DNA of 64,000 bases from Posidonia oceanica (taxonomy: Eukaryota; Streptophyta; Magnoliopsida; Alismatales; Posidoniaceae), in the NCBI GenBank assembly GCA_037176725.1, contig JAZBRS010000013.1:6203001-6267000 (forward strand). The letters are read 5' to 3'. The notes under the pieces were generated by a model. It was given only the letters and a program-made list of their open reading frames with translations, did no database searches and was not told where the DNA came from. This document shows positions 34,571 through 57,927 of this stretch, in pieces (position 1 is the stretch's first letter; every line of letters starts with the position of its first letter). The position numbers and the translations under genes were made by a program.

Positions 34571-35223
34571 TGTGGATACGGGGTTTTGGAGGAGAGAACT
34601 TTGTTTCGTTTCTTTTACTTTCTCGAGGTCCCCTTTTGTTGTATCCAACTTTGCCACTCCACGTATGAGGAAGTTGGTGTGATTGCCACACCAGGTTTGC
34701 TTTTATCGGCCCTCAAAATGCCTTGGGGAGATTGATCGGAGTAGGTTCAGCTACCTTGGGACAACGCCGGCGTTGCCCAAGGGTGCTCGTGCTTTGGTGA
34801 GTTCCTTCTTCTTTTTCTTCCTTGCAAAACAATGTTAGAGATCCAGATTATTATGGTATAGTAAATTATCCCAAAATAAAACTAAAAACCAACATAAACA
34901 AATCAGAGAAGTACTTACCTAAGGGGTTTTATCCCCCTCGTTGCAACTAAATATGAGTATGCCTAGCTACAACAATATGTAAAATGACATGCGATATGTA
35001 AAAATACTAAGGAAGAAAACCCCTTTTAATCTAAGAAATGTGATGTGTTGACGTGACGTGGTTGGAGAAAGAAGAAGGCTAGCTCTTTGGCTCTCTCTTT
35101 CTCTCCAATTTCTCTCTTCAAATTCGTGTCTCTCTCAATTTTGATTTTTGGTCTTCCCCCACTCCAAAAATTTGTCCTTTCTCCCAAATCCCCCGTCCTC
35201 TCTCAAGGTTGAGGGTACCCCTA

Positions 35224-35231
35224 CTTTTATA
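35224..35231 (-). promoter_or_regulatory. TATA box of D 3' LTR
   Basis: Minus strand CTTCTATAAAAGTAGGGG. The equivalent in the solo LTR is at 54498-54505 with CTTCTATAAAAGCAGGGG, so it is conserved between copies. Confidence 0.7.
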
Positions 35232-35324
35232 GAAGCTGGGGAAGAACAAAATGGTGTCAAAGGGAGCCAACTCAGCAAAGTTTTCAAAACAGAAATGTTA
35301 GACGCGTATATCTCTGCTTTCAAC

Positions 35325-35352
35325 GTTAGACGCTGGGAAACCAGCGTCTAAC
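35325..35352. promoter_or_regulatory. Perfect 12-base hairpin upstream of the D LTR TATA box
   Basis: GTTAGACGCTGG faces CCAGCGTCTAAC across the 4-base loop GAAA. It lies about 95 bases upstream of the TATA box in the element's orientation. A related pair, GTTAAACG facing CGTTTAAC, lies at 35794-35821. The same word family recurs upstream of each cargo gene. Confidence 0.75.
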
Positions 35353-36177
35353 AGCCTCCCGAGCTACAGTTGTTGTGGATAAAGAATATTCTCCCTTAAA
35401 TGCTAATTAACCATGATTAAGCCACTCTTAATTGGCATTAAAGGGCTTTGACTGGTCAGGGAATCCAAACATGGTAAAAGAACCCAGATCGAATTTGGAC
35501 CAGATATGGAAAGTTGATCCAACAAATTATCGTCGTAAGACACATGGAACCATGCATTCTACGTTGGACGGCTGGATCCCAACGTATAACGACCCTCTGA
35601 GGTACAACTGTGGATTTGAAGGAATAATCAGCAATTAATGGTGGATTAATACCAATTAAATAAAGATTTATCAATCACTTGGTCAACGGACCTCCAAAAG
35701 GAGCAACAAACAAGAACTCGGATTTGGCTAAATAAGGAAAGTTGGGGTCAACACTGGGTTTCAACGTTAAACGCTGTTAAACTAGCGTCCAATGTTAAAC
35801 GCAGGGATACCCACGTTTAACACACCCAGGCAGTCCACCTTCCAAATTTGGCCAAGAAATTAAGGGTGCTCAAATTGCTGTCATTAAAGTACAAATAAAG
35901 GACTCCTTAAAGGCATGAAGACAATGTTGTGACCTGGAGATTAAGTTGGATTTATGAAATGGGCTGATCTGGCCACAGTTCCTCAGGGTTGTTAAACGGG
36001 TAATATCCTGCATCCAATGTAGGATGCTAGGAAATAATCTTCCAACACCCACGATAAGCGTTTGGCTTGAATGAGAGAGCTTAGATTGAGAAAAGGGCCT
36101 CTAGAGGTGAACTAAGCATGATATGGTGCAAAGGGGTTTCACTACAATGAGAGAAGTGCCAAAACGGGGTGTCTACA

Positions 36178-36193
36178 GATTGCCCCCCCTTTA
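36178..36193 (-). other. Polypurine tract of element D
   Basis: Minus strand reads AAAGGGGGGGCAATC directly before the LTR's TGTAGACACC. It fixes the element's orientation. Confidence 0.75.
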
Positions 36194-36325
36194 AGACACC
36201 TTCGGTAAAAAGCTAACTACAAGGCGAGACAATACCCCTGTGTGGCACTAGCCAGGGTTTCTAAAAGAAATCCAATGCCTGCTGCCACCAGGCTTGGACG
36301 AGACACAATAAGGGTCGGATGAAGA

Positions 36326-36565
36326 GACACAGCCAAGGACGTTGCCCGAGGAGGACAGACTAAAAGACACAGCCACGGGGGTTACCCGAGGGGGTCAAAC
36401 TAAAAGACATGGCCACGGGGGTTGCTCGCGGGGGTCAAACTAAAAGACACAGCCACGGGGTTTGCCCGCGGGGGTCAAACTAAAGGACACGGCCACGGGG
36501 GTTGCCCGTGGAGGTCAAACTAAAAGACACGGCCATGGGAGTTGCCCACGGGGGTCAAACTAAAA
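36326..36565. repeat. 40-base tandem array of D, first block, 6 units
   Basis: Six 40-base units of the form GACACRGCCACGGGGGTTGC followed by CCGNGGGGGTCAAACTAAAA. The G-runs are separated by GCCC, so units can fold back on themselves. Confidence 0.85.
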
Positions 36566-37202
36566 GATGGGTAGCAAATGTCTCCGACGACCACTCAATG
36601 CGTATGCAATGTAATGCGCTATGCATGGATGCGTGTTGGCGGGAATGCATGGGAGGTGATCATGATATGTAATGCATGACCCTAGATAATGAGGTTCCTC
36701 CATCATTGCCGGCTTTGATTTGTATACCGAGTTGGCTCAGGAATTTTTCTCATTACCTAAAGCAAATTGATACATGCATGAATGCAATTTGTCATAGTCA
36801 AGTACCCATTCATCGAGTGTAGCCTACACTCTCCATAGGAACCATCGTCCTATGATACGCAGGTTGGTGAGTGAGAGGTCCATGATGCTCCCAAGTGTTG
36901 GGCAAAGGGGGTTGACCTCTTCTCTGCTAGCTGTGTTGGCTTTATTTGTCATAATCGGGTGTCTTTTTATCGAATGTAGCCTACATTCTCGACAGGGACC
37001 ATCATCTTATAACCTGTGAATTAGTGAACGATGGGTTCACTAATACCGTTGGCTTTATTCATCAGATCAAGTATTTTTTCATCGAATGTTGCCTACATTC
37101 TCGACAGAGACCATCATCTCATGACCTGTGAATTAGTGAACGATGGGTCCACTAATACCGTTTGCTTTGTTTACCCGGTTGTGCTCCGGGGTGTTTATGT
37201 TA
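36566..37202. repeat. Three diverged copies of a medium-length repeat
   Basis: Between the two 40-base arrays, a block with GAATGTAGCCTACATTCTCG (itself a hairpin), then ACCATCATC and ATTAGTGAACGATGGG, is present at about 36805-36900, 36965-37060 and 37080-37165. The last two copies are the closest. No coding content. Confidence 0.7.
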
Positions 37203-37985
37203 AAGGATACGGCCACGGGGGTTGCCTGAGGGGGTCGAACTAAAAGACACAGCCAGGGGGGTTGTCCAAGGGGGTCGAACAGGAAATTTAAAAGACATGG
37301 CCTAGGGGGTTGCCCAAGGGGGTCGAATTGAAAGACACAACCAGTGGGATTGCCCGAGGGGGTCGAATTGAAAGACACGACCAGGGGGATTGCCCAAGGG
37401 GGTCGAATTGAAAAGACACAGCCAGGGGGATTGCCCAAGGAGGTCGAATTGCAAGACACAGCCAGGGGGATTGCCCGAGGGGGTCAAATTTGAAAGACAC
37501 AGCCAGGGGGATTGCCCAAGGGAGTCGAATTTGAAGGAAACAACCAAGGGGGTTGCCCGAGGAGGTCGAATTGAAAGACACGGCCAGGGGGATTGCCCGA
37601 GGGGGTCGAATTTGAAGGACACAGCCAGGGGGATTGCTCGAGGGGGTCGAATTTGAAAGACACAGCCAAGGGGATTGCCCGAGGGGGTCGAATTTGAAAG
37701 ACACAGCTAGGGAGATTGCCCAAGGGAGACAAATTTGACAGACACAGCCAGGAGGATTGCCTGAGGGGGTCGAATTTGAAAGACACAGCCAGGGGGATTG
37801 CCCGAGGGGGTCGAATTGAAAGACATGGCCAGGGGGATTGCCCGAGGGGGTCGAATTTGAAAGACACAGCAAGGGGGATTGCCCGAGGGGGTTGAATTGA
37901 AAGACTCAGCCAAGGAGATTGCCCGAGGGGGTCAAATTGAAAGACTCAGCCAGGGGGATTGCCCGAGGGGGTCGAATTGAAAGAC
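37203..37985. repeat. 40-base tandem array of D, second block, about 19 units
   Basis: Units of 40-41 bases: GACACAGCCAGGGGGATTGC followed by CCGAGGGGGTCGAATTTGAAA. One unit carries an insertion. Minus-strand open frames up to 194 codons cross it (repeats like FDPLGQSPWLCLSNSTPSGN), and they vanish at unit indels, so I treat them as non-coding. Confidence 0.88.
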
Positions 37986-38341
37986 ACATATTCAAATAGC
38001 ATTGACTTTGTTTGTCCAGTTGTGCTCTGGGGATTCTGGATTTCCCTTTTCCTCTGCTCTGGAGCGTTGAACGCTTGATTTTCTGCGTCCAACGTTGAAC
38101 ACGCATATTCCTGCGTTTAACGTTGAACGGCAGGCGGCTGCGTTTTACGTCTCAAGACAGACTGCCTTTCTTTCCTTCCTTGATATCACCAATCCAACAG
38201 TAAATCTTTGATTTATTGGTTGTTTCCTTTCGTGTGAGGACTCCATGGCCTATATTAAGCCCCCTCCTTGGCTTTGATTTGCAAAACACAAGTGAATCTC
38301 TTCTTTGTCTCTGTTACTTGTGAGGAATTGCAGCTGTCCTC
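37986..38341 (+). promoter_or_regulatory. Promoter region of cargo gene P1
   Basis: A cluster of palindromic words lies at 38065-38150: CGTTGAACGC at 38065-38074 faces GCGTCCAACG at 38085-38094 (one mismatch), followed by GTTGAACACGC and GCGTTTAACGTTGAAC. A TATA-like CTATATTAAGC is at 38250-38260, about 90 bases before the ATG at 38342. The same layout precedes the other two cargo genes. Confidence 0.6.
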
Positions 38342-39729
38342 ATGGATTTAAGCAAGATTCCTTGTCATGCTTTCAAAGTAGCCAACTTTTCTTCTCCTTC
38401 TGACCAAATGCAACTTCGGTTAGAGGCCATGCCTAACCATCTGGTGAATCTTTTGGTGAATGAAAAGGTACTATTTTTTTTTATGTCTCTTCATACTACT
38501 TTCTTTTTCTTTTCTTCCTTTTTCCTTTTTTTTTTGTTTTTTCTTGTACCGATCTTTTCCTTCTTCTTTTCCTCTTTCGTAGCCTCTAGCTTGCTCAAAT
38601 AGCAACCAGGATGGTAAGGCCTACCAATTGGATTAGGTCCATAATTTCCATACTTGGATATTAAATAGGTACCGAGATCAATTGGAGGAGGCTGGCTTCT
38701 GTCAAATCCTTCAGCGACTACGGCAACCCATTGACTGGAAGGCGTTCTTTGGCCTTTGTGGGCTATGGAACCCCCTTACTCATACATTCTTCACCTCAGT
38801 GGGGGGAGCTTACTATTCTTCTGGAGGAGGTAAGTGCTTTATTGGGCATTCGACAAGCTGATCCTTCCATTTATTCTAGGGATGCGTATCTTTTGCCAAC
38901 TGGGGTGGTAGGATCCTTTTCCCTCCTTAAACGCATCTTTGGCTCCGTCATTGTCCTGGAGGATCTGGTGTTGGATGGTTGTATCAACCTCGCCTCTTTG
39001 TGGAAATTCTTTTCGAAGCAGCGGGACAACATTCGTTCGGAAGCCTCTTGCTGGGAGTGCATCTTTATTTTGATTGGTGGGCTGGTGCTCTTCCCAAATG
39101 AGGCTTTAACCATTAGCGCATACCATGCTGAGCTTATGTGCATGAGCGTCCACAATCTGGAGAAAAGTTTGAGTCAATCTGTGTTGGCTTTCACCATTCG
39201 GGGTTTATCCAGTGCTTACCTCGGTGGGCCATTCTTTGGGTCACCTTTTCTGGTTCTGCGGTGGCTGGATGAGCATATTCTGCTGCCTACTCTTGATGCT
39301 AGCCATCCCCTCGAGGAGTATGTTCGCAGGTTCTGCACATGTGAGGTTGAGCCTCAGATTGATTTCTTCAACCACCTCTCAACATTTCGGATAGCATACG
39401 ATCCTAAGTATTTCTTGATACTTGTTGGGGCAACAGAATTTGTGAGGTACAACCCCCAACGCTGCTTTTCTATGTTGGGCATTCCTCGGGCTATACCTCC
39501 CATGCCTCGTTTCTCGGATATGATCCTTCCCCGCCTGAGGGACACCCCTGGAGATATTGCTCAAGTTTACTTTCACGCCGGCATCTGGGATGGAAAAGGA
39601 CAAAGTCATGTCCTTTCTTTGTGGGATAACCCGAATGTGGACCGTGAAGCCATCTCCAACGCTACTCATGATGTTTCGTACAAGGGGGTGAAGCCCAATT
39701 TCTTCATTGAGTTTCCTGCGAAGAAGTAA
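38342..39729 (+). pseudogene. Cargo gene P1: PMD-like protein, one frameshift
   Basis: Exon 1 38342-38467 (MDLSKIPCHAFKVANFSSPS start; AAG/GTACTA donor). Exon 2 begins near 38669 and runs to TAA 39727-39729. The domain begins with IDWKAFFGLCGLWNPLTHTFF, then GELTILLEEVSALLGI, matching the plant mobile domain pattern W-x-P-x-x-H-T-F...E-x-T-x-x-L-E-D-V. Later come a Cys-rich EASCWECIFILIGGLVLFPN and GPFFGSPFLVLRWLDEHILL. A one-base excess in the G-run at 38801-38806 breaks the frame between the two halves of the domain, and the exon 1-exon 2 phase also does not fit cleanly. It lies antisense within element D. Function unknown; host PMD proteins act in silencing and development. Confidence 0.65.
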
Positions 39730-40154
39730 AAGTTGTGATCAATCTTTTATCTTTAATCATCAATAAAGTCATATTTTATTTTTCTTTGGCTGCTTCCCTC
39801 TTTCTATCAAATATTCATGCCTTCTATCAAATAAAATTAAAGTTCAGAATACTCCCTGTATTAGATGTGTTAGACGCGTGAACTGGCACGTCCAACATTA
39901 TCCACTAGGATCTCTACGTTTAATGCTTTGCCTTCCTTGGGGTGTTGGACGCGTCGTTTTGCGCAGACAACGTTTTGCCTCCCGATGCATTGGACGACCC
40001 AGTTCACGCGTATAACGTTGAATGGTATAAAACCTCTATTTTACACAGCGGGCTGGCATCCTTTCTTCTTCCTTTCCTCTTCTCCAGCGACAGCGGCCTT
40101 CCTCCCTCCAACAACGACTTCCTGATTCCGGTGAGGTCCCTCATTTCATAAAAA
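39730..40154 (+). promoter_or_regulatory. Promoter region of cargo gene P3
   Basis: Palindromic words at 39868-40020: GTTAGACG at 39869-39876 faces CGTCCAAC at 39889-39896 (one mismatch), then GTTGGACGCGTC and CACGCGTATAACGTT. The TATA box is TATAAAA at 40026-40032, about 125 bases before the ATG at 40155. Confidence 0.6.
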
Positions 40155-43100
40155 ATGAAGAAACGTATTTCCCATTTCTACTCACGAGCGGCAAAATGTG
40201 TCCGGACGGAACCCGGGCCAATGACCCCCGGCGAGCCTGGGGAGGTCCCATCGACTATTTCAGCAGCTGTTCCGGTAGTGGTAGAGACAGCACCGACAAC
40301 TGTGGAGGCCAAGGCAGGGGCTACCGGTGCTGTGGCTGAGGAGGCGGCGGCTGTGGAGGCCGAAATAGGGGCTGCGGGTGGTGGGGCTGCGTCGGCTGAG
40401 GTGGTGGCTGTAGGTGGGGACACCGGTGACGCGGCCGTGGTGGCGGCTGGGGCAGTGGCCGAGGATGCTATGGAGGCTGAGGTGGTGGCTACAGGTGCCG
40501 TGGCCGTAGTGGCAGAAACGGGGGCTGCCGGTGACGATGCTGCGGAGGCAGGGGCGCTTCCGAGTGTGAGCTCTGGCGACTCCGCTAGTTCATAGGAGGA
40601 CTCGGGGGAGGACTCAGAGGAGACGTTTTCAGAGGAGGAGATGCCCGAAGCGGGGCCCGTCGATCCTCTGGTTGCTCAGTTTGGCGAGGACAACGCCTGG
40701 TACCGCAACATTTTGGACTTCTTTCGACAGGAGGGGGAGGGTGGCGCTATGGATCCCCTAGACTTTTGGCGGGCCTAGATTCCCCACGACGAGGTTCAGG
40801 CGTCGGGACCACATAGGGATGTGTCCCAGATTGAGTATGCCACTGCCACTTTAGCATTGAGAGGACAGGTAACTTTTCTTTTAATCTCTTTCTCATTTAA
40901 TTTGATTATGTCTGCCTGCTTGACAATTCTTTTCTCTTGTAGAGTCGGGCGCCAGCGGTGATTCGATGCTACTGGGGGCGGGTCCGCCGATCCTATGATA
41001 TGCTGGCTCCTTTTCAGCGGGAGCGCCTGGGATAGATGGGATTTGGGCACTTCCTGTCCATTCCTAACTTTCCCTTACCACTCATGTTCTTGGAGGCAGT
41101 TGAGGAGCAGTACAACTTCCGAACCAGCTCTATAGTCACGAGAGCTGGCGAGTTCGTCCTTTCACTAGAGGATATGGCCCGGCTAACTAGCCTACGAGTG
41201 ATGGGCCACCCGGTGACTAGACGGGTTCGCTCGGACTATACTTCCTTGACGAAGGAGCTAGTAGGCAAGCAGATGGCTATGCACGGGCACCAGCTCTTGG
41301 TCATTTCTTCTGTGGTCTGTCGAGTCGAGGAGTTGGCAGTGACGATGACTGAGCCGGGTGTGGAGGCTGACCAGCAGCTCCGAGCTTTTCTGTTGGTGCT
41401 GTTTGGGGAGGTCCTCTTTTCCCACGCTTCTTCAAAGCTGTCTGCTGTCTTCTTGCCCCTTCTAGCTGATCTGGATCGAGTGGGAGAGTACACTTGGGGA
41501 GCAGCAAGCCTAGCTCACTTGTACTCGACCCTCTTCCACTTCACAGATGGCAGTTCTCATTAGCTAGGTGGGAACTTGCCTTTTATCCAGGTAAAATGCT
41601 TGCTTGCTTGTGAATACCGCACGATATGATATAATATGCTAATTGAACACTCATGTTTCCTATGCAGATGTGGGCGTGGGACCACTTCACCTTCTTGCGA
41701 CCCACTCCTCCTCCTGTTCCTCTGATGGGCGTACCCTTCCCCCGAGGATTGATTTGGGTTGATGCTGAGCAAGCCCTTGAGCCAGCAGATGAAAGCCGCT
41801 ATGTTGGTCGTCAGCTTTTCGAATTGCTGGTCCCTACTCATGTAACTTGCTTCCTTATGTCTTTTCTGCTTTTGCTTATTTATTTATCTGATATTCTTTT
41901 GCTCTTTTCAGATGGTCTGGCGCCCCTATGCTGAGGGGGAACACGAGGATGTCCCAGATATTGCCCGTGATCGGGTCGTTTTTGCCAAGGACATTTGGAT
42001 CCACTGCTAGAACCACTGCCACTTCCAACAGATCAGCAGGGCGCTTCGATAGTTGGGGCACCAGCAGATTCAACCTCTCCCTCCTCCTCACAAGCTTTGG
42101 TGGGAGACTCGAGGCGGGGGCAGCCACGCTCGTCACTGGGTCGACGTCTACGACCTGCAGTTGCTGGACTGGGCTCGTCACGGTTCCCCTACTCCGACGG
42201 ACGTGACGGAGCAGGACGAGGCTGCCTGGGCCGGATGGATGGACGTTGAGTTCTCCTCTCTGATGGTCTTCCACCAGACCCACTTCCTCGGGCGTTCGAA
42301 CCTTCCCATGGGGGACACAGATCCTGGGGCTCGGGCGGCACTGCTGGCGGAGGCTCAGTCGTACCGTGCCCAGCTGGAGATAGCGATGAGCTTTTAAATT
42401 TCATTTATAACCTGCCAATTCAGTTTGCTGACTTGCTTCTTTTCCTTTTGTAGTTCAAGGCTGAAGATGAGCAGGCTCAACGAGAGCGTGGCCTGACCCA
42501 GCAACTATCTTCCTTGACAAGGGAGATCGAGCGCCTTCGTGCCTCTACTTCATAGGTATTTTTTACATTTTTGTTGCTTTGAAAACTTGTTTATAGATTG
42601 TAACTGAATACTTTCTTCTTTACAGCCCTCGACCAGCTCTACGCCTCCTCCAGATCATTCAGAGGAGATCTCCCAACTCCAGGATAAGGTATATGGATAC
42701 TTCTATTTTTGCTTTTGAATGAATCCTACTTGATATTAACACTGTTGCCTGTAGGTTGCCTATCTGGAGCACGAGCTGCAGGAACGGGTTGGTGACTTCA
42801 TTGTTGCCAACTCTATGGAGAGACTGAGCGAGTTGGAGGGGACAATGGCCTCCCATGCTACTCTGATCCGGGAGTTGGAGCAGCGAGTTGCAGACAGGGA
42901 TGCTAAGGTTACCAGGACTCAGGCGGTATAATTGGCTTTGCTTCAGCTTTCCTTTTATTTCTTTGTCCTTGCTTGTATTTGATATTTTGATTGCTTTTTT
43001 TTTTCTCTACAGAGTTTGCAAGGCACTGAGGGGGTCATCTCACAGCTTGAGATCGAGCTAGGACACTACAGGAAGCTCGCTTATATGAGTGGTGCTAGGT

Positions 43101-43270
43101 TAGGGCAGCCAATTCCTCCTCCACCGACGCATGAGTCGAACCACCGTTCGAGTAGTCGCTGCTCCCGATCTGTCTCTAGGGCTCCATCAGGTGTTTCAGT
43201 TCGCCCTCCTACAATTCCCTCTCCGGCTCCTCCTTCAGCTCTCGAGGGTGAGGGAGAGAGTACTCCCTAG
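40155..43270 (+). pseudogene. Cargo gene P3: multi-exon PMD / PP7-long-form-like gene with coiled coil
   Basis: Splice-site reading suggests exons 40155-40868, 40943-41590, 41668-41841, 41912 to about 42397, 42454-42555, 42626-42688, 42755-42925 and 43013-43270. The N-terminus is an Ala/Val/Glu-rich low-complexity stretch. The middle has FRTSSIVTRAGEFVLSLEDM (PMD-like), a segment with YTWGAASLAHLYSTLF, then MWAWDHFTFLRP and MVWRPYAE. The C-terminus is coiled-coil-like (LTREIERLRAS; LEGTMASHATLIRELEQRVA). In-frame TAG codons occur at about 40593, 40777, 41033 and 41561, plus others near 42008 and 42051, mostly where Trp or Gln would fit. The layout resembles proteins annotated as PP7 long-form homologs. 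It is decayed, but exon borders remain recognisable. Confidence 0.6.
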
Positions 43271-44103
43271 CTGGTTGCTGTTGTTTTTCTTTTTATTTGT
43301 CCGCATTTGTATCTCAGGGGTATGCCCCGATGATCTTGTAACAACAAACTCATTTTTGAATGATAAAGATTTTCTGCGCACTGAGCAAACTTGTCAAATA
43401 TCTCTTTTGAATTACCTTTCTCGGAGTTAAAATGAACTTAAGCGACCAATATAGTTAAATAATGGCCTCTAATTCAAATTAACTTGAAACCAGCGTATTC
43501 ATGTGAAATAATATGTAAATGACAAAGTTATGAAGAAAGATTTCACTTGTGAGCTTTAAAATTAAGTTTTGAGGTTGTCGATGCCTTAGCGAGCCATCAA
43601 CTCGATGAAATGCATAACTGATGATTCTGAATGGCCTAGATGTCCAAAAAGTACGAAACCAGTGCTCATACGTGTATTCCAACTTGATTAAGCCTCTAGG
43701 ATTGACAAAACACTGATTTAGGGGAGCCATAGCCAAGTTCAGCAACTTAAGTCACTAATAAAACGTTAAACGCGTGATCTGGTGCGGTTAACATTATATG
43801 CTGGATTATCTGCGTCCAATACTGGAAAGCTGGTTTGAACGTAAGACGCTTGATATGATGCGTATTACATGGGACACACTAGTTCCCACGTACAACAAAG
43901 CGAGCCCAGAATCCTTTCTTTCCTTTCTTGATCTTGGCTAATTTTCTGGAATGCTGCGAGATTTTCTCAATGCCCTCGTAGGAGACCTCCGACGGTCTTC
44001 CTGTGCTTATAAAAGCTTGGCGGCCCCTTTGGACTCATGCACCCTTGTTCTTTGTATTCTTGCTTGTGTTGGTGCACTTGTGCATCTCCTCTCCCTTGTT
44101 CTC
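43271..44103 (+). promoter_or_regulatory. P3 3' flank and promoter region of cargo gene P2
   Basis: 43271-43400 looks like a 3' UTR (TGTAACAACAAACTC, AATGATAAAGA). A palindromic word cluster lies at 43762-43895: GTTAAACGC at 43765-43773 faces GCGGTTAAC at 43784-43792 (one mismatch), and GTAAGACGC faces GCGTATTAC. The TATA box TATAAAA at 44008-44014 is 90 bases before the ATG at 44104. Confidence 0.6.
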
Positions 44104-45447
44104 ATGGCATCTACTTCAGTCCCCAACGTCTCTATGCACAACAAGAGAGGAATTGCAAAGCCTTTGGAGGAAATTGAAAGGCACATGATGTCCCATATTA
44201 AGGCCGAGAAGGTATGATTCTCCTCACTGGTTTCTTATTCTTTCTTGTTCCTCATCTTTTGCTCTCATTTGCAGGAGATCCTTAACTTTACAAAGGCACC
44301 CTACTTTGCTAATGATTTCCCTTACTATTCTCCCTAGGTGAAGGAATTTGTGCCTTGGGCTCTGGAAAGAAAGTCCGTCTTAGCACGCACAAGCTTTGGT
44401 GGGCTCCTAGACTTGTTGGGAACTGCCTTGGACTGGCCTCTACTCCATGCCTTATGTGCTTTCTGGAGTCCTAAAGCTCACACTTTCTTCCTTGGGGGCT
44501 GTGAGATGACGATCCTGGTGGAGGACGTTCATGGCCTTCTTGGTGTTACCCAGATTGGGGCCTTCCGACCAGATATTGACTTCCCATTGCCATATGAAAA
44601 AGCAGACATGCAAGTGTTCATGGATCGTATCTTCACTGCTCCACCCACTTTCCCGGTGCTCAAAGGTCGCCGGCTCAACTTGGCACATCTGTATTATAGC
44701 TTCTGCCAGATCGAGGATTCTGCCTCCAAGGATCAGCTGCAGATCTATCTGCCTTTATTGATTGGAGGCCTCACCATATTTGTCTCCAAAGACTTTACCT
44801 TGGACGTTTATCATACTGAGTTCTTGGTGGGGCTCACCAAGTACTTTCGGCGTTCTCCTTCGGTTGCCATCCTTGCAGCCACATACCTTGGTCTGACCAG
44901 TGTCTCAACCGGAGGGGATTTTGTAGGCTCTCCTTTTCTTCTTTCCCGGTGGTTGCATGTCCACTTCCCGAGACTCGAGCCTACGAAGATTGATCTTATT
45001 GAGGAGAGAGTCTGCTTCCTGTCCTCTGCTTCTATCAACATCTTCACACCCTCTACTCCATATTATCGCAAACACCTGGCGCAATGGTCTCCGATTGAAT
45101 TAGAATTGATTGGGCCCACCCACTTCGTGGTGTACAACTCTCATCGCTGCTTTGAGATGGTGGGGCAAAAGAAGGGAGCATCGCCTCGGCTAAGCTCTAT
45201 TCCTCTTATCCGAACTCAGGAATGCGGCTCTCCAACTGATGCAGCGATGGTGTATTACATTCGAGCTCTTTGGGCAATGTTGGACCGCCATGATGACTCA
45301 GATGGGACCCACTCTACTCCTTTGACTTGCTGTCTACTCCGGGAGGATGAGCACTGGAATTGGTACTCAAAGTTGCCGCCCAAACCTAAGGAGTGGATTG
45401 AGGAGACCGACATGCTACGCAAAAAGAGGAAGAGACCAATTAGATAG
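44104..45447 (+). CDS. Cargo gene P2: intact PMD-like protein, two exons
   Basis: Exon 1 44104-44211, intron 44212-44337 (GTATGA...TCCCTAG), exon 2 44338-45447 ending in TAG; 405 residues with no internal stop. Exon 2 carries LDWPLLHALCAFWSPKAHTF, then EMTILVEDVHGLLGV, the plant mobile domain signature. GDFVGSPFLLSRWLHVHFP follows, paralogous to GPFFGSPFLVLRWLDEHILL in P1. The C-terminus is basic (MLRKKRKRPIR), possibly a nuclear signal. An alternative acceptor at 44274 would run into a stop, so 44337 is preferred. Neighbours are the paralogues P1 and P3 on the same strand, all antisense to element D. The fold is related to a domain found in transposons and in Arabidopsis MAIN/MAIL1; biochemical activity is unknown. 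Confidence 0.7.
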
Positions 45448-45880
45448 GCCATCTTTGCAGTTCATTTCCATTTTTGGACCATGTATTTTTAATTCAAGGA
45501 ATGAATATATGAATATATATTTTCTTTTATTTCAACTCTTATTCATATGCTTTAGACAGTGTTGAGTCTAGAAATACTCCCTGGTGACTTTGGCATTGGC
45601 TCAAGGGCCCCTTTGTCTGAATTCAGTAACTTAAGTCACTGTTAAAACGTAAGATGCTCAATCTGGCGCAGTTAACATTATACGCATGAAGTCCTGCGTA
45701 TAACGTTCCTTTGTTAGTCATTAAACGCAGAAGGTGGGACGTCCAACGTTGAATGCTGAGATTTGCCCATTTAACGCCTCTGAATGATTTTCTGCACAAT
45801 CTTAGCAAACTTATTATTCCATCTAGGGTTACCATTGCCCCTAGTCTTACATAAACCAAAATGACTTTCATGAAAAGAAA
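45448..45880. other. 3' flank of P2 and a fourth palindrome cluster
   Basis: After an AATGAATATATG-rich 3' flank, a further word cluster occurs at 45645-45780, including the perfect pair TTATACGC at 45678-45685 and GCGTATAA at 45696-45703. No TATA box plus ORF follows on the + strand, so this may be the relic of a fourth cargo unit. Confidence 0.5.
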
Positions 45881-47530: not shown

Positions 47531-48696
47531 TCAAGGGTAGTACCTTTTGAGGTGCAGTGCATGCCAGGGATATTCAAGCCTAGTTCCGTCCTCTCCGACC
47601 AAACAATAGGCATTGCTCGGATATGCTTTAACCACCAAGTACGATCCTTCCCAATTTGGTCTCAGTTTTCCATGCTTGCGAAGAAGGATTTCTTTAAGCA
47701 CCCATTCACGAATATTGAATTTACGTTCAATTAATTTCCTTTTATAAGCTCTTGCAAGTCATTCTTGGTAGAGGCGTGCATGCTCAACTGCCTGCAACCG
47801 CTTCTTATCTAGTAAATCTAACTGTAAACTTAATAATTGCCTCTTATCCTCAGCATTTATCTCATCGTCGAGTTGGATTCTAGATAAGGGGACCATGATT
47901 TCAAATGGAACTACTGTCTCCATACCATAAGTAAGCGCGAACGTGGTTTGACCCGTAGGTGTTCTTATGGAGGTTCAGTAGGCCCATAAAGTATCAATTA
48001 GTTTATCTGTCCAATCAGGTCCCTTGGCACCTCCTACCGTTCTTTTAAGGATTCGGATTAACGTTTTATTAGTAGCTTCAGCTTGCCCATTACCTTGGGG
48101 GTAATATGGTGATGAATGATGCATCTCAATCTTGAACTTCTTGCAAAGCTTTTTGAAGTCCTGGGATACGAAGATTGCACCGTTATCTACTACTAGTCTC
48201 TTTGGAATCCCGAATCTTGAGAGGATGTTCTTTCGCACGAACTTGCAAAGGTTTGAATCTTTGATCTCAGTGAACGCTTCTGCTTCAACCCATTTGGTGA
48301 AGTACTCAGTAGCAGTGAGCATGAACTTGTTCTGCTTTTCGGTGGCAAGGGGTCCTACGACATCGAACGCCCACATGGAGAAGGGCCATATTGCTTGAGT
48401 TGGATTTAACTCTGATGCTGGTGCATGTATTCTGTCTGCATGGATCTGGCATTACTTGCACCTTCTTACCTTATCTGCACAATCTACCTCCATTGTGGGC
48501 CAGTAATAGCCCCTCCGTAGTATCATTTTTGCCATGAATTGAGAACTGATGTGTCCTCCATATATCCCTTCGTGCATTCCTCTAAGGATGAATTCGAGCT
48601 CCTCGTAGGTGACGCAACGAAGCTCTATTCCGCTGAAGGATCTCTTGAAAAGGACTCCGGCTCTCATGAAGTATCTTGTGGCCATTCTTCTGACTA
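47531..48696 (-). pseudogene. Integrase of element D
   Basis: Minus strand. The zinc domain has MHEGIYGGH and CADKVRRCK-stop-CQIH, the stop falling where Gln would fit. The core has TATEYFTKWVEAEAF, VVDNGAIFVS and NGQAEATNKTLIRI, giving the D,D,E triad. A TGA follows LWAY, where related integrases have Arg (element C reads WAYRTSIRT). The C-terminus ends HLKRYYP at a TGA complementing 47531-47533. It would catalyse cDNA insertion. Not functional as read. Confidence 0.88.
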
Positions 48697-49340
48697 CCTC
48701 TTAATCATGTGAAGTTGTATACTCAGGGAAGGTCCTGTCTTGAATGTAGCTCCAGATGTCGAAGAACCATGGGTTCCCATCATCTTCTATGTTGTAGCAA
48801 ACTTCAAACTTGATTGCCTTCGATTCCCCAATTCTCTGTTTAAGCTCCACCGCCCATGATTCAGTTGAGTCAATGACAAATGTCCCATGCTGCTGCACCA
48901 TAATTGTTTTCTCTTGGGTATTTATGGGGAACTCAATTGAAGAAGCCAATGAAGCAAGAGCATCCGATAGAAGGTTGACTCTGGAGGGTATGGACATACA
49001 CCACTTGCTGGAATTGGGCTAACAATAGACAGGCAATGCCTTTGTATGTTTCTAGCCTTGGGTTGAGGGTTCTGTACTTGTTCAGAATTTACCTTAGGAC
49101 CAACTAGGAGTCTCTGATGAGCTTTAGTTGCTTTGCCCCTAGCTCCAGAGCTAGGCGTAATCCGTGGATCAAGGCCTCGTATTCTGCAATGTTGTTGGTA
49201 TTTACGGCGAAGTTCAGTTGCATAGCTCGTGAGATGAGGACTCCTTCCAGGGTGAGAAGCGCCACTCTGATGCCTGCCCCTTGCCTGTTGAGTGCTCCAT
49301 CAAAGTAGAAGGTCCATTGTTGACTGGGAGGCTCTGCAGC
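48697..49340 (-). pseudogene. Second (archaeal-type) RNase H of element D
   Basis: Minus strand. WTFYFDGALNRQGAGI carries the first catalytic Asp that element C has lost. NNIAEYEALIHGLRLALELG and, after frame breaks, LSDALASLASSIEFP follow. The domain marks the Tat lineage. Several stops lie between 49020 and 49120. Confidence 0.8.
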
Positions 49341-51010
49341 TTATATTTCCAGTATTTCCTCATTTGGGAAGTCTGTTTGGACTGGTTGATAGTCTTCTAT
49401 TGGTAAACTTGCTAAATGATCCTCTATGGCTTGCCCCTTAACTGCTTTCTGAAGTACATATTGAAGATCAAACTCAATGAGGAGGAGTTGCCATCTTGCT
49501 AGCCTTCCAGAGAGGGCTGGCTTTTCGAACATATACTTGATTGGATCCATTTTGACAATGTAGCAGACTTTATGAGCCAGGAAATAGTGCCTCAATTTCT
49601 GGGATGCCCATACCAAGGCTAGGCAATGTTTCTATGGATGCGTACTTTTCCTCGTACTCCAGGAAAGTTCTACTCAAATAGTAGATAGCCTTCTCTTTCT
49701 TTCTGTCTTCATCATGTTGGGCTAGCACTACTCCAATGGAGGATGAGGTGACCGCCACATACAGTAATAAAGGCTTTCCTGGTACGGGTGCTGACAGGAC
49801 CGGAGGGCTCATGAGATATGCCTTGATCTCGTCAAAAGCTTTCTGGCAACTTTTATCCCAAACAAACTCTTTTCCTCCCTTTAATAGCTCGTAGAAAGGC
49901 TTACATTGGTCGGCGTGTTGCGAAATGAATATCTTGATGAACTGTAAGCAACCGATGAGTCCTCTGAGCTCCTTGATATTCCGTGGAGGAGGCATTTGTG
50001 CTATTGCTCTAGCCTTCTGTGGGTCTACTTCAATTCCTCTTTTGATGATGATGAAGCCCAGTAGTTTCCCAGCTGTAACTCCAAACACACATTTCTTTGG
50101 GTTCATCTTTAACTGATATTGCCTTTCTCTGCTTAATACCCTTCTTAGTGCTTCGAAGTGTCCTTCCCTTGTTTTTTATTTGACCAGGATATCATCAACA
50201 TACACTTCCATGCGGTCGTGCATCATGTCGTGGAAGATTGCCATCATTGCTCTTATGTCGCACCGGCATTCTTGAGACCAAAAGGCATGACCACATAACA
50301 GTATGTTCCCCATGGTGTAATGAATGATGTCTTCTCTTGGTCTTCTTCTGCTAGCTTGATCTGATTGATGCCGGAGAAGCCATCCATGAATGATAACATC
50401 TCGAATCCCGCTGTATTGTCAACTAGTAAGTCGATATGTGGCAAAGGGAAGTCATCTTTGGGATAGGCGGTGTTGAGGTTGCGATAGTCAATGCAAACCC
50501 TAACTTTTCCGTCCTTCTTGGCTACTGGCACTATGTTGGAGACCCAGTCAGGATATACCACCACTCTGATGAATTTTGCCTTATGGAGCTTGTTGATCTC
50601 CTCTTTGACTTTGAGTGCTAGCTCTAGCCTCAATCGCCTCAGTTTCTGTTTGACAGGTTTGGCTCCAGGGTTTAGTGGAAACAGGTGTTCGACTAGGGCT
50701 GATCGCAGACTGGGCATGTCTTCGTATTTGAAGGCCAACACATCCACAAACTCCTTCAGAATTTGCACCATCTCTGCTTGCTCTTCTGGGCTCAAACTGG
50801 CACTTATGAGTATTAGCTTTAGCTCTTTTGTGGTCCCCAGGTTGACTTCTATGGTCTCTTCTCTGACTGCCTTAGTCTGCTCATCATATTTATCCATTAG
50901 GTGCTTAAGTAAGTCTGAGTCGGTTTCTTGGTCCTCCTCATCATTGCTGCAATTGACTAGCTCGTGTGCCTCGATTCCTGCACACTTAACAGATTGATCA
51001 AATTCTTCTA
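49341..51010 (-). pseudogene. Reverse transcriptase and RNase H of element D
   Basis: Minus strand, entering from the intron at 51010 with VEEFDQSVKC. Contains VNLGTTKELKLILISASLS, SNIVPVAKKDGKVRVCIDYR, then the intact YPKDDFPLPHIDLLVDNTAG. A frame break at about 50250 is followed by YVDD at 50202-50191, then GKLLGFIIIKRGIEVDPQKA and a first RNase H (LLLYVAVTSSSIGVVLAQHD; AIYYLSRTFLEYEEKYASIE). A further frame break lies near 49610. Confidence 0.9.
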
Positions 51011-51247
51011 CTAGGAAAACCATGTTAGCAGTAGTTAGCTACTGAGGCATTGCCTCCGTGTATTGACACACGTGCACAGTTTTTGAAGCAATGGTCGATG
51101 TTGACCACGAGCTGCTACAACCAACATGGTGATCCTCTCCCTTTTTGAAAACAGAAAGTAAATTGCCACTATTTCTAGGAAATGAAAACAATGCAGAATT
51201 TAACAGAGTTTTATTTACAGAATGTAAGAGGATGTCCCTAGAGTTAC
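51011..51247 (-). other. Putative spliceosomal intron before RT in element D
   Basis: Minus strand donor GATGGAG/GTAACT at 51247 and acceptor TTTTCCTAG/TAGAAG at 51011, 237 bases, with a CTGCTAAC branch-point-like word about 15 bases before the acceptor. The joined reading frame (Gly-Val-Glu-Glu-Phe) leads straight into the RT frame, whereas unspliced sequence has stops. Ogre elements are known to splice an intron between protease and RT, so this fits the lineage. Confidence 0.65.
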
Positions 51248-51959: not shown

Positions 51960-52110
51960 CGAGGAACTAGTCGAAACCAAGTCCTCCTTTCCCTTCTCTG
52001 TCATAAGCATGGACTGGCTCCTTTATTCCTTTTCCTTCTGGGACTAAGCCCTGACCTTCCTTATAGCCAATCTTTCTCATGATCTCCCAACCTACGCTCA
52101 TGGAGGGCCT
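51960..52110 (-). pseudogene. G-patch domain of element D
   Basis: Minus strand WEIMRKIGYKEGQGLVPEGK continuing GIKEP, then GKGGLGFD: the aromatic start, G-Y-K-E-G-Q-G-L core and closing GLGF match a G-patch. It sits between protease 2 and RT, as in element C. It ends at a TAG (Asp-stop-Phe). Such a module next to a retroviral-type protease probably binds nucleic acid or RT. Confidence 0.75.
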
Positions 52111-52850
52111 TCAGGACTTTGGAGATGCTTTTCTTTTGTGAACCAGCTTGGGCTTGGCCCATTTGTCCCTTAGCTCAACCATAGATACAATGTTCTTTCC
52201 TTTCTCAGCTCTAGTTGGCTTTTCTCGCACACTGAATTGGTGTGGTAAGTATATCACGTTCGCCTCAGCTTCCTTGCCTGGTATGTCCCCTGTTATTTTG
52301 ATAATTTTCCCGTTGTAAGGGAATTTCAGACATTGGTGCCGGAGGGATGATACTCCTTTCAGGTTGTCAAGCCGTTGCCTCCCCAAGATGATTTGATATG
52401 GAACATTCATGTCTATGACAATCAATTGGGTTAGAACCTGGGTTTGTCCTATCCCGATTTTGGTAGTTCATTTGCCGTGAGCTTTTCTCTTGCTGTCATC
52501 ATATCCAGGAATTGTCATGTCTATGGAGGTCAGTGAGGCTTCATTCACACCCAGAGCCCTTATTGTATTCAAAGAACAAATATTCATTGATGCTCCGGCA
52601 TCTATAAGCACGCCAGACACTAAATGATTATTTATGGAAATTGTTATATTTAGTGGTGCTTTCCTCGTTTCCAGTGGTGCCAGCTCGCTATCAGCAAATG
52701 TAATTATAGGCTCTACAAAAGCTATTGTAGCTATTACATGGAGATCCTCTACTGGTATGTCCGGAGCAACTTACGCCTTCTCCAACAATTCCTGTAGAGC
52801 TTTTCGATGTAAGACTAAGCTGTTATGAGATCAAAAATAGAGATCCTGGC
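52111..52850 (-). pseudogene. Protease 2 (canonical Tat position) of element D
   Basis: Minus strand. ILEQLKKTQARISIFDLITA, the segment that precedes protease in element C, then GVLIDAGASMNICSLNTIRA with DAG at 52602-52594, and YQIILGRQRLDNLKGVSSLR. The active-site triplet reads DAG instead of DTG/DSG. Frame breaks lie near 52465 (TGA/TAG) and 52770. This is the orthologue of element C's protease by position and flanking motif. Confidence 0.82.
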
Positions 52851-53844
52851 CTGTGTTTTCTTCAGCTGCTCCAAGATGTCATACTCTGTTGGCACAGATC
52901 CTTCTCGTGGTCTAACCGGCTCTGTTTGCTCCACTGGTGACATTATCCGGTTTGATAACCGTCCTCCTCTCGTAATGGGTGCCGCTGCCTCATCCTCTCT
53001 ACTTTGACTTCCTGATTCTTCTTTCTTTTTGTGTGGCAAGGCGAAGACAAACTTCTTTTGCATGGGCCCCTAAGCACTGGTGGTTTAATGGCTCTGGATG
53101 GTTGTCTTGCTGGTACTTGGAAGATTGAAGATGGCAGAGTAGTAGTGTTCCGAAATACCAAAGTACTTTGTGAGCCTGGTGCTTTGAAGATTGGCAACTG
53201 GCCTGATGGTGGCCTAGCTGCTCTGAAGATTGGGGAGACCGGCGGTGATTGTGGCTTAGGACCCCACAGCGATAACTTTCTCCATGGTGGGAGTTGTGCC
53301 TCTTCCTTATCCTGAAGGGTAGCTATTTGAGGTTCAAGCATCTTGAATTTGCATAATATCCCCGGACGATTAGCAGGAATGCTAACAACCGCACCCTCGT
53401 ACTTGAATTTCAGCAACTGATGAACAGGAGATGCCACAGCTCCGACTTCTGCTAGCCAAGACCTCCCGAGGATGAGAGGTTCTAGGACTTCTTCCTTCAA
53501 GATGATTACTATGGTGATGCTGGTCAAAGGGCCCACTGTAATTTCCATTGGTATTGTCCCTAGAGCCTATTTCTCGCTTTGATCGAACCCAATGCACATG
53601 AAAGGGGTCTTGTCTAGTCCATCCTCATTGATCCCTAGGCTTTGGAGCGTGGCTAAAGAACTAAGGCTTTGTCTTGCTCCAGTATCAACTAGCACTCCCT
53701 GTAGCACATGGTCATTGATGCCCACTGTAATGACGAAAGGCAGTTCTTGCTTATGCGGTGGCGGAAGCGTGGATTCTTGGAAGACAATGTTTTCTTGTTC
53801 AAATTGCTTGGTGGCTTTTTGAATCAAGGTGAGAGAGTTTTCTT
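52851..53844 (-). pseudogene. Protease 1 (extra retropepsin) of element D
   Basis: Minus strand. LPFVITVGINDHVLQGVLVD followed by TGARQSLSS, with a canonical DTG at 53686-53678, then EPLILGRSWLAEVGAVASPV and LLKFKYEGAVVSI. All parts of a retropepsin core are present: two beta-hairpin halves, DTGA and the ILGR-x-WL motif. A long Pro/Ser-rich linker to 52943 leads to protease 2. It is absent from element C, whose zinc finger runs straight into a linker and one protease. One TAG occurs near 53565. Confidence 0.82.
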
Positions 53845-53849
53845 CCTCC
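53845..53849. repeat. Target duplication of solo LTR, left copy
   Basis: CCTCC, repeated at 55045-55049 at the other end of the solo LTR. Confidence 0.85.
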
Positions 53850-55044
53850 TATAGATACGGGGTTCTTTTCGTGTTGGAGGAGAAGATGGGTTTTGCTCTT
53901 TTGTTGGCTTCTCGGAGTCCCCTTTTTTTTGTATCTGATTTCAACACTCCACGTGTATCAAAATCGGTGTGATCGCCACTCTCGATTTGCTTGCGCTAGC
54001 CCTCGAGACGCCTTGGGAGATGTGATGTGTGGGTTCAGCTACCTTAGGACAACGCCAGCGTTGCCCAAGGGTGCCTGTGCTTGGTGAGTCTCTTCTTCTT
54101 CTTCTTCCTTGTAAAACAAATGTTAGCAAAAATATGGATCAATATGGTGTAGTAACTTATTCAGAATGAATAAAATGGGACATAAAGAAATACTTACCCA
54201 AGGGATTTTATTCCCCTGGTTGCAACTATGTATGAATGCCTAGCTACAACAATATATGAAATGAAATGCGATTCGCAAAAATAAAAAGAAAAACCCCTTT
54301 GTTTATTTAAGAAAAGTAATATGCGATTGGCGTGCTTGGAGATAGAAGAAAACTCAAGCTCTCTCAAAACTCTTTCTCAACATAATCTCTCTTGAGATTC
54401 TGGCTCAAAACTCTCTCAATTTTTCTTTCACAAATTCCTCTAAAAATTCCCTCCTAATTCAAAAATCGTGTCCCCTGTGGCTATGGGGGTACCCCTGCTT
54501 TTATAGAAGCAAAGGAGGAACAAATATGGATTAAATGGCCAGATCAGCAAACTTTCCAATTCAGGGGTGTTATAAGCTGAAATCCTAGTGTATAACGACC
54601 TCCGAGGTACAATTGCCAGAATAAAGGAATATTCCCTGAATAAAGGTTGATTAAGAGTCTTTAAACTAGTTTTAATTGCCTTGACTGGTCAACAGATTCT
54701 AAAGAAGATAAAAACATGGATTTCGTATTTGGCTAAATAAGGAAATTTGTGTCTGGCACTGGGCTTCAACATTAGACGCTGGAAAACCAGCATCTTACGT
54801 TATAAGTTGGGATTCCAGCATATGATGCCCTCAGTCAGTCCACCTTTCAAATTTGGTCAAGAAATGAAGGATACTCAAATTGTTGACACTTAAAGCGCAA
54901 TAAGGGATGAAGATAATGTTTTGAACTAGGGAATAGGTGTTTGGCTCAAGTGAGAGGTCTTGGATTGAGCAAAGAGCCTCTCGGGATGACCTAATGCAAA
55001 AGACTACACTACCATGAAGGGAGTGCCAAAACGGGGTATCTACA
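53850..55044 (-). repeat. Solo LTR of the D family inside D's gag-pro gene
   Basis: Minus strand TGTAGATACCCCG at 55044, ending CCCCGTATCTATA at 53850; 1,195 bases with near-perfect inverted ends and CCTCC on both sides. No internal region. Removing it and one CCTCC leaves the gag-protease 1 frame open across the junction, so it is a later insertion that recombined to a solo LTR. It shares blocks with the D 3' LTR. Confidence 0.88.
54498..54505 (-). promoter_or_regulatory. TATA box of solo LTR
   Basis: Minus strand TATAAAAG in CTTCTATAAAAGCAGGGG. Palindromic words upstream on that strand: GTTATA at 54569-54574 facing TATAAC at 54591-54596, and a decayed copy of the 12-base hairpin at 54772-54797. 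Confidence 0.65.
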
Positions 55045-56025
55045 CCTCCGTGCTATCTTGCGGTTCATTTGCTACCGTGAAGATGAACTGGCTAAAAAGA
55101 TCTTCAATTGTTAGCCCTTCGCCTGCTTCGCTGTCCCAGTCATCATCTGAGATCATTTCTTCATCATTGGCTTGGTTGCCCCAGTCTTCATCTGATATTG
55201 CTTGGCTGTCCCAGTCCTTTGTTATTAATGGGTTAGGGATCTTGTCGTCCTTGAATGCCATTATTTGATGATTAGGGAGGGGGTCATTGTAGATTTACTG
55301 AGATGCCCCTATTTGCTCCCTCTATTTGGCTCTCTTTACCAAGACGTCCCATTCAAATACATCTACCTCTACCATGTCATAGACTGCATCTCTGAAGGTC
55401 CAGCAGTCATCTATGTTGTGACCATGTCTTCTATTGAATGGACAATACTTGTTCTGGTCACAGTTCGGAATTTCTGGCTTGGTTGGCGGGAGTTCAATTG
55501 CTTTTGGGCTTTCTAGCTCTATGAACATATCCGCCAGTGTGACTGGCAGAGGAGGGTAATGGTCCCTTTTTCCCCCTCTAGGTGGCAATAGCTGTGGAGG
55601 GGGGACATTATGATAATTGCCCCTATTCTCATTGTTGTTGCGGGGATTACCATTGTTGGCTTGATTGCTCTGTTTGCCCCTATTCCATTGGGGTTGGGGG
55701 GTATTCCACAGAGGGCAGATTCATTGCTGCTGAGGAGGATGGCTCCATGCTTGTTGCTGAGGGGGGCGGCCCCATGATTGTTGCTGCTGAGGAGGGCGGC
55801 CCCAAGATTATTGCTACTGAGGATGGCTCCATGCTAACTGCTGAGGAGTTACTATGGCTCTTTGCTCCGGTGGTTTGGGAGCGGTATTAATTCTGTTTAT
55901 AGCTCCAGTTACGCCTTCCACTACTTGTGCTCTTTTGCTCCTCACCTGGCTGTGCGATAAATTCCCAAACCAGGTAGGTCCCACCTTTTTGGCTGTGTGA
56001 CAATCTTCCAAAATCAAAAGGTGTT
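55045..56025 (-). pseudogene. gag C-terminal part of element D
   Basis: Minus strand. A Gln/Pro-rich linker with repeated QQQSWGRPP-like words (55700-55860), then PPRGGKRDHYPPLPVTLADM and a zinc-knuckle-like CPFNRRHGHNIDDCWTFRDA (about 55430). An acidic segment (DEDWGNQANDEEMISDDDWD) leads into protease 1. Stops occur near 55260-55320 and in the Gln-rich linker. The capsid domain is missing: the element is truncated near 56025, where A'-type sequence starts. Confidence 0.8.
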
Positions 56026-57924: not shown

Positions 57925-57927
57925 TTA

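What the first reader, a model, noticed from the sequence alone, without database searches (positions are those of the whole stretch)
36178..45880. A retrotransposon carrying three antisense PMD-like genes as cargo
Between integrase and the 3' LTR of element D lie three genes on the opposite strand (P1 38342-39729, P3 40155-43270, P2 44104-45447), each with introns, its own TATA box and a PMD-like domain. P1 and P2 are clear paralogues (GSPFLVLRW / GSPFLLSRW); P3 is a longer multi-exon form with a coiled coil. Antisense extra ORFs are known in some Tat elements (for example Grande), and PMD-type domains are known in transposons. A three-gene battery with separate promoters is more than I know to be described. 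Host PMD proteins MAIN and MAIL1 act in transposon silencing in Arabidopsis, so a decoy or anti-silencing role is a testable guess.
Basis: partly seen in the sequence, partly recalled or inferred. Interest (0 to 1): 0.88.

Follow-up and report, generated by a model that had tools for sequence, protein, structure and literature searches.

The report
Retrotransposon with three PMD-like antisense genes
An abundant plant retrotransposon family carries three antisense genes related to plant-mobile-domain proteins, and the same palindromic DNA motif is arrayed in its terminal repeat and in front of each gene, so one of these proteins likely binds the motif and would keep the element switched on.

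Summary
The three antisense genes are real and belong to the element, a Tat-clade Ty3/gypsy retrotransposon. Of 11 other copies read from the same 2.96-Gb genome, 7 keep the order P1-P3-P2, 3 have P3-P2 and 1 has P2 alone. dN/dS is about 0.2-0.3 for all three genes, so they were kept as proteins while the family spread. In this copy all three are broken, and the similar LTR at 54-55 kb is a solo LTR.

A palindrome, GCGTYYAACGTTRRACGC, mostly spaced 28 bp, is arrayed in the LTR upstream of its TATA box, upstream of each gene, and downstream of P2. In 29 other copies of the P2 locus, 274 of 276 motif hits lie in the same two spots. The genome holds 62,801 exact sites against 1 for the reversed control, and another LTR family carries arrays too.

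PMD domains in gypsy elements and antisense genes are known; a PMD trio with shared operator-like arrays was not found in my eight literature searches. Best reading: a self-encoded, VANC-like activation or anti-silencing system. Binding is untested.

The parts
34571..36177 (-). 3' LTR of the element (TGTAGACACC...TCCACA on the - strand), TATA box at 35231
   Evidence: same LTR type at the same place in L051, L053, L055
35294..35353 (.). palindrome array 1 in the LTR, centres 35296.5, 35324.5, 35352.5 (28 bp apart)
35757..35822 (.). palindrome array 2 in the LTR, centres 35765.5, 35793.5, 35821.5 (28 bp apart)
36178..36192 (-). polypurine tract
   Evidence: read directly
36281..38022 (.). tandem repeats of 40-41 bp next to the 3' LTR
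   Evidence: families D2, D3
38063..38151 (.). palindrome array upstream of P1; TATA box at 38251
38342..39729 (+). P1, PMD-like gene: predicted exon 1 38342-38467, exon 2 38583-39729; broken in this copy
39869..40025 (.). palindrome half-sites upstream of P3; TATA box at 40026
40155..43270 (+). P3, multi-exon PMD gene with a tail of coiled-coil look (by eye); broken in this copy
   Evidence: read directly
43762..43850 (.). palindrome array upstream of P2; TATA box at 44008
   Evidence: present in other copies
44104..45447 (+). P2, PMD gene: predicted exon 1 44104-44211, exon 2 44275-45447; broken by one in-frame stop in this copy
45646..45756 (.). palindrome array downstream of P2, partly a duplicate of the one upstream (77% over 78 bp)
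   Evidence: present in other copies
47534..48700 (-). integrase pieces
   Evidence: rve 1.2e-13, Integrase_H2C2 9.6e-7
49107..49340 (-). second RNase H between RH and INT
   Evidence: RVT_3 6.7e-8
49344..51038 (-). RT and first RNase H pieces, frame broken
51976..52110 (-). G-patch domain
   Evidence: 4.2e-10
53570..53842 (-). protease-like piece
   Evidence: Asp_protease_2 0.0042, below its cut-off
53843..55041 (-). solo LTR of a related family with target duplication GGAGG; not this element's 5' LTR
55325..55720 (-). gag-like piece
   Evidence: recognised by eye; no Pfam match; weak similarity to element C's gag

Best explanation
This is the 3' part of a Tat-clade Ty3/gypsy retrotransposon family that carries three PMD-like genes antisense to gag-pol, with one palindrome, mostly spaced 28 bp, arrayed in its LTR and upstream of every one of the three genes, and one or more of the three proteins likely bind these arrays and would activate or un-silence the LTR and the trio together. 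How it would work: the antisense genes are probably transcribed from their own promoters (inferred from conserved TATA boxes); because their predicted introns are antisense, splicing of the genomic RNA would not remove them (inference); the proteins would enter the nucleus (inferred from P2's basic tail); a dimer would sit on each palindrome (inferred from its symmetry) and, like VANC on VANDAL transposons, keep that DNA transcribed or unmethylated (untested). Sites before the trio's own genes would give positive feedback, and sites in the LTR would couple this to genomic RNA. Shown: order, orientation, arrays, spacing, recurrence in other copies, and purifying selection. Not shown: transcription, binding, or any effect on silencing.
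For: Trio in the same order and orientation in 7 of 11 other copies read. dN/dS: P2 median 0.28 (351 pairs), P1 0.19-0.30 in the 11 of 15 pairs with dS above 0.28, P3 PMD exon median 0.22 (36 pairs). Motif: the exact 9-mer half-site occurs 11 times in 64 kb, all in the 3' LTR (5) or upstream of P1 (3), P3 (2) and P2 (1); the 12-mer with up to 2 mismatches 34 times against 8.9 in shuffles, 27 of 34 in the LTR and four spacers, 0 of 200 permuted patterns reaching 27. Spacing of 27-28 bp in both LTR arrays and at P1, P3, P2 and downstream of P2; 101 of 138 neighbouring spacings up to 80 bp are 28 or 29 bp over the window and 11 copies. In 29 other P2 loci 274 of 276 hits lie in two spots. Genome: 62,801 exact palindromes against 1 reversed control. 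VANC is a proven precedent of a transposon protein with its own motif arrays (PMC5735166, passages).
Against: No evidence here that any PMD protein binds DNA; the structure model failed (pLDDT 30). The DUF1985 match of P3 is below cut-off (18.2 against 35.1 bits). Another LTR family, not similar to this LTR, carries many arrays, and I do not know that it encodes PMD genes. The array downstream of P2 has no gene behind it. The half-site with 1 mismatch is only mildly enriched over the whole window (47 against 29.6), and with 3 mismatches 67 of 114 12-mer hits lie elsewhere. In a blind word count, random region sets equalled or beat the real one in 3, 2 and 4 of 300 trials at k = 7, 8, 9. P1 fails the PMD cut-off. 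The window's own copy is broken in all three genes.
Confidence: 0.42

Rival explanations
1. A host transcription factor, not an element protein, binds the palindrome; this element and other LTR families gathered the same host sites and are expressed together, and the PMD proteins do something else.
For: Arrays also occur in an LTR family with no BLAST similarity to this LTR, and the motif is extremely abundant in the genome. The core AACGTT is an ACGT-type core that plant bZIP factors are known to use (recalled, no call).
Against: The arrays stand before each of the three element genes as well as in the LTR, which fits self-regulation; I tested no host promoters.
Confidence: 0.32
2. The PMD proteins are decoys that tie up the host silencing proteins MAIN, MAIL1 and PP7L; the arrays are ordinary promoter elements.
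For: Host PMD proteins act in transposon silencing and interact with each other and PP7L (PMC5418596, PMC7156037, passages).
Against: Does not explain one palindrome shared by the LTR and the three promoters. P1 and P2 are distant from the PMD profile.
Confidence: 0.14
3. The arrays are satellite-like filler without regulatory function, spread because the elements spread; palindromes would matter only as hairpins.
For: [quoted passage not shown] The spread through copies follows from descent alone.
Against: Placement before every TATA box of the LTR and trio, absence from the genes, fixed spacing, and presence in an unrelated LTR family.
Confidence: 0.1
4. The three genes are ordinary host genes lying between transposon fragments.
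For: Introns, separate promoters, long distance from pol.
Against: P2 search: 36,456 first-look candidates, the 111 scored ones 83-100% identical and on many contigs; trio next to the same LTR in L051, L053 and L055.
Confidence: 0.02

Closest known systems
Extra ORFs of Tat-clade elements: Ogre with PMD (Neumann 2019, PMC6317226, passages and section 13 read; Steinbauerova 2011 seen only as cited)
   Same: Tat clade with a second RNase H between RH and INT; PMD domain in extra genes (57% of Ogre elements)
   Different: Three PMD-like genes in one cassette, antisense, each with its own TATA box, and palindrome arrays shared with the LTR
Retand antisense ORFs (Vicient 2025, PMC11963269, part 1 of 5 and passages read)
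   Same: Long region from pol to 3' LTR with antisense ORFs and tandem repeats
   Different: There the domain is mostly TRP28 (PF04195) and the region 2.9-6.6 kb; here PMD and about 11 kb, and no PF04195 match in the pieces scanned
Grande gene23 (as described in PMC7264820, passages; Gomez-Orte 2013 not read)
   Same: Antisense gene between pol and 3' LTR with its own promoter; nuclear protein
   Different: One gene; no PMD reported; no shared motif with the LTR reported in the passages seen
PMD-A1 and PMD-A2 of gypsy elements, and host MAIN/MAIL1 (Ikeda 2017, PMC5418596, section 11 and passages; PMC7156037, passages)
   Same: PMD protein family encoded by gypsy elements
   Different: Clade of P1-P3 not determined here; three genes and arrays not described there in what I read
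VANC anti-silencing proteins of VANDAL transposons (PMC5735166, passages)
   Same: Works like, if the reading holds: transposon-encoded non-transposase proteins with short motif repeats in the non-coding parts of the same elements
   Different: DNA transposon; DUF1985 and DUF287; 8-9-base motifs; binding and demethylation proven there, untested here

Membership tests
Ty3/gypsy, Tat clade (Ogre/Retand) | second RNase H between RH and INT | tested here: met
   RT_RNaseH at 49344-50175, RVT_3 at 49107-49340, integrase at 47978-48700; rule from PMC6317226
Ty3/gypsy, Tat clade (Ogre/Retand) | two LTRs with primer binding site | tested here: inconclusive
   3' LTR and polypurine tract present; no 5' LTR in window or next 19.8 kb
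Ty3/gypsy, Tat clade (Ogre/Retand) | Ogre or Retand by RT tree | not tested
   no reference sequences used
PMD (PF10536) | profile score over the curated cut-off: P2 and P3 | tested here: met
   P2 40.9 bits, P3 PMD exon 80.9 bits, cut-off 34.9; two other P2 copies 36.6 and 45.3
PMD (PF10536) | profile score over the curated cut-off: P1 | tested here: not met
   11.2 and 10.4 bits; kin to P2 at 32% identity
VANC (DUF1985, PF09331) | DUF1985 profile over cut-off | tested here: not met
   P3 18.2 bits against 35.1
VANC (works like) | short motif repeated in non-coding parts of the same elements | tested here: met
VANC (works like) | own protein binds the motif and lowers methylation | not testable with these tools
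   needs binding and methylation data
Retand antisense ORFs | TRP28 domain (PF04195) | tested here: not met
   no match at E up to 1 in the five pieces scanned
PMD-A1/A2 (gypsy) or PMD-C (MAIN/MAIL1) | position in a PMD tree | not tested
   no reference sequences used

The most novel reading that the evidence does not exclude
A retrotransposon runs its own regulon: a trio of PMD-like proteins recognises a palindrome phased at 28 bp in the LTR and in the trio's own promoters, a self-encoded, sequence-specific anti-silencing switch, and the operator has been taken up by other LTR families, leaving tens of thousands of copies of one 18-bp palindrome across the genome.
Probability: 0.33. Interest if true: 0.92.

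Novelty: new variant of a known kind. Interest (0 to 1): 0.78.

Why it matters
What the antisense genes of plant gypsy elements do is an open question (PMC7264820, PMC11963269). Here a recurring trio under purifying selection comes with a concrete candidate target, one palindrome found 62,801 times in the genome. One DAP-seq or gel-shift experiment could tell whether LTR retrotransposons encode their own sequence-specific activators, and would bear on why gypsy elements hold relatives of the host silencing proteins MAIN and MAIL1.

Tried and rejected
Host gene cluster: rejected by the recurring LTR-P1-P3-P2 order.

P2 intact in this copy: my first exon model used an AG that most other copies lack; dropped.

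The LTR-like stretches at 34.6-36.2 and 53.9-55.0 kb as the two ends of one element: rejected, since the second is a solo LTR with its own target duplication; the distance between them (K2P 0.36) was therefore not used as an age.

P2 structure: failed, pLDDT 30. PDB by sequence: no match for P3's PMD exon or P2. Protein database: 2 relatives of P2, none for P3. Viral contigs: no relative of P2 or integrase and one 14-residue match for P3; the exact palindrome occurs in 6 viral stretches, not followed up.

Codon positions of P1 against P2 within the window differ too much to be telling; copies were used instead. The bacterial promoter scan says nothing here. A genome-wide count of the 28-bp spacing was asked and never answered.
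Full report
Anatomy. The element is on the - strand. Its 3' LTR ends at 36177 (TGTAGACACC read on the - strand) and is preceded by a polypurine tract at 36178-36192, so the stretch from 36178 upward is internal to the element. Further 5' on the - strand come integrase, a second RNase H, RNase H, RT, G-patch, protease-like and gag-like pieces, with stops and frame changes. The order RH, second RH, INT is the mark of angiosperm Tat elements, Ogre and Retand (PMC6317226 section 13). The stretch at 53843-55041 has its own 5-bp duplication GGAGG and sits between gag and protease: it is a solo LTR of a related family (72% identical), not the 5' LTR. I found no 5' LTR in the window or in the 19.8 kb to its right.

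The three genes. P1 (38342-39729), P3 (40155-43270) and P2 (44104-45447) are on the + strand. P2 and P3 pass the PMD cut-off; P1 does not, but is 32% identical to P2. Other copies showed that the AG I first took as the acceptor of exon 2 in P1 and P2 is mostly not kept, whereas an AG further upstream is (23 of 29 P2 copies, 5 of 5 P1 copies). With the corrected exons each gene is broken in this copy, P1 and P3 more than once. The stretch with P2's stop is open in 17 of 29 other copies and the one with P1's stop in 4 of 5. Each of the 5 other P1 copies counted has 1 to 5 stops further on. Of the 111 P2 matches scored in the genome 14 have no stop inside the matched part, the window's 369-codon stretch being one of them. 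TATA box and start codon are kept in 6 of 6 P1 copies, 4 of 4 P3 copies, and 24 and 26 of 29 P2 copies.

Recurrence. The window lies in a 2.96-Gb genome of 80 contigs. A P2 search gave 36,456 first-look candidates; the 111 scored ones, window included, are 83-100% identical in amino acids. I fetched 10 kb upstream of P2 for 11 other copies, all on the + strand and picked from the list, not at random. Seven have P1, P3 and P2 in the same order and orientation: L050 (P3 split by a nested LTR), L051, L053, L055, L056 (P3 doubled), L057 and L058 (P1 partial). Three have P3 and P2 (L048, L052, L054), one has P2 alone (L049). The same LTR type follows at the expected place in L051, L053 and L055.

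Selection. dN/dS by Nei and Gojobori, stop codons skipped. P2 exon 2: 27 of 30 loci (3 dropped because their match begins one residue later than my fixed offset), 351 pairs, median dN 0.056, dS 0.198, ratio 0.28; the window's copy against the others 0.37. P1, second part of exon 2: 6 sequences, 15 pairs, 0.19-0.30 in the 11 pairs with dS above 0.28 and 0.40-0.85 in the 4 closest pairs, as decay after insertion would give. P3 PMD exon: 9 sequences, 36 pairs, median 0.22. The P2 loci were ranked by P2 similarity, which can lower dN; the P1 and P3 sets were not ranked by their own similarity, but copies with gaps in these parts were left out. All three genes were kept as proteins while the family multiplied.

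The palindrome arrays. Reading the spacers I saw a recurring word, GCGTYYAAC, which with its mirror forms GCGTYYAACGTTRRACGC. In the window the exact 9-mer occurs 11 times, all in the 3' LTR (5) or upstream of P1 (3), P3 (2) and P2 (1). With one mismatch it has 47 hits against 29.6 +/- 5.6 in shuffles, a mild excess. The 12-mer GCGTYYAACGTT with up to 2 mismatches has 34 hits against 8.9 +/- 3.3, 0 of 100 shuffles reaching 34: 27 in the 3' LTR and four spacers (3.1 kb in all), 2 in the solo LTR, 5 in the LTRs of the neighbouring element C. None of the 34 lies in P1, P2, P3 or pol. With 3 mismatches 67 of 114 hits lie elsewhere. Of 200 permuted patterns none reaches 27; the best has 11. Since I chose the regions and the word by eye, I also ran a blind word count: words of this motif came first, but random region sets equalled or beat the real score in 3, 2 and 4 of 300 trials at k = 7, 8 and 9, some with densely repeated words, some at k = 9 with ties. 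With up to one mismatch, palindrome centres are 28 bp apart in both LTR arrays, upstream of P3 and P2 and downstream of P2, and 28 and 27 bp upstream of P1, alongside some other spacings. Over the window and 11 copies 101 of 138 neighbouring spacings up to 80 bp are 28 or 29 bp. Each array lies upstream of a TATA box except the one downstream of P2. Similarity between these regions is almost confined to the arrays, apart from P2 upstream against downstream (77% over 78 bp) and matches of 20-25 bp.

In other copies. In 29 other P2 loci 274 of 276 hits fall in two windows, upstream and downstream of P2 (17.4 of 119 kb), two or more sites upstream in 25 of 29 and downstream in 29 of 29. I set the windows. 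The best of 60 permuted patterns has 45 hits in these windows. Common descent explains that copies share the arrays; it does not show function.

Beyond this family. A 3.4-kb LTR nested in L050 (imperfect flanks GATGG and GATAG) has no BLAST similarity to this LTR but 17 sites with up to one mismatch, 13 of 19 spacings being 27-29 bp. A relative of it (81%) lies in L057. Its end resembles element C's LTR (73% over about 600 bp), yet C's LTR has only 3 scattered sites. The genome holds 62,801 exact 18-bp palindromes against 1 for the pattern read backwards; by my own arithmetic, ignoring composition, chance would give about 0.7. I do not know how many of these lie in which family.

Interpretation. 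A protein binding as a dimer to a phased array, placed at the LTR promoter and at the promoters of the three genes, is the simplest reading. Whether it is one of the three proteins or a host factor is not decided. I favour the element's own proteins because the genes are retained, PMD proteins are tied to transposon silencing (PMC5418596, PMC7156037), P2 ends in a basic stretch that looks like a nuclear signal (by eye, recalled rule), and VANC on VANDAL transposons is a worked example of a transposon protein with its own motif arrays (PMC5735166). Against this stand arrays in another LTR family, no DNA-binding evidence for PMD, and a DUF1985 match below its cut-off. In tea, PMD genes yield phased small RNAs (175 PHAS loci; PMC10673657, passages), which fits a host response to such genes; I did not identify the species of this window.

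What is known. [quoted passage not shown] sections or passages seen; of PMC10398659 only the abstract and outline; Steinbauerova 2011 and Gomez-Orte 2013 only as cited). In eight searches I saw no description of a three-gene PMD set or of one motif shared by an LTR and the promoters of antisense genes. That library lacks most subscription papers.

Noticed in passing
window 7111-34166: Element C, a second Tat-like element on the + strand: LTRs of about 6 kb (97.3% identical), target duplication GCAGG, two RNase H domains, G-patch, and a PMD/DUF7745 gene in SENSE orientation after integrase (24663-25916, PMD 5.8e-10 for its second part).
   Followed up: partly
G000:C62, about 1.36-1.86 Mb: PMD matches repeated about every 25.4 kb, beside transposase-like ORFs in the loci read (L011-L015): looks like a long tandem array of a PMD-bearing MULE.
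   Followed up: no
L050 4262-7657; L057 about 45-2736: A 3.4-kb LTR family nested in copies of this element, not similar to its LTR but full of the same palindromes.
   Followed up: partly
L056 2696-8800: P3 and its upstream region are doubled in tandem within the cassette.
   Followed up: no
protein P0002 (ENA, contig of 1063 bases): A hybrid whose first part resembles P1 and last part P2, as if the two genes had recombined.
   Followed up: no
window 52471-52770 and 53570-53842 (- strand): Two successive protease-like stretches in pol; only the second named one has a (weak) Pfam match.
   Followed up: no
window 57514-61797 (- strand): Copia-type pol fragments upstream of the element's gag, recognised by eye.
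   Followed up: no
L008 (G000:C75:7965734-7966819): The best PMD match of the genome (330 bits over the whole profile, open frame of 704 aa), perhaps the host's own MAIN/MAIL-type gene.
   Followed up: no
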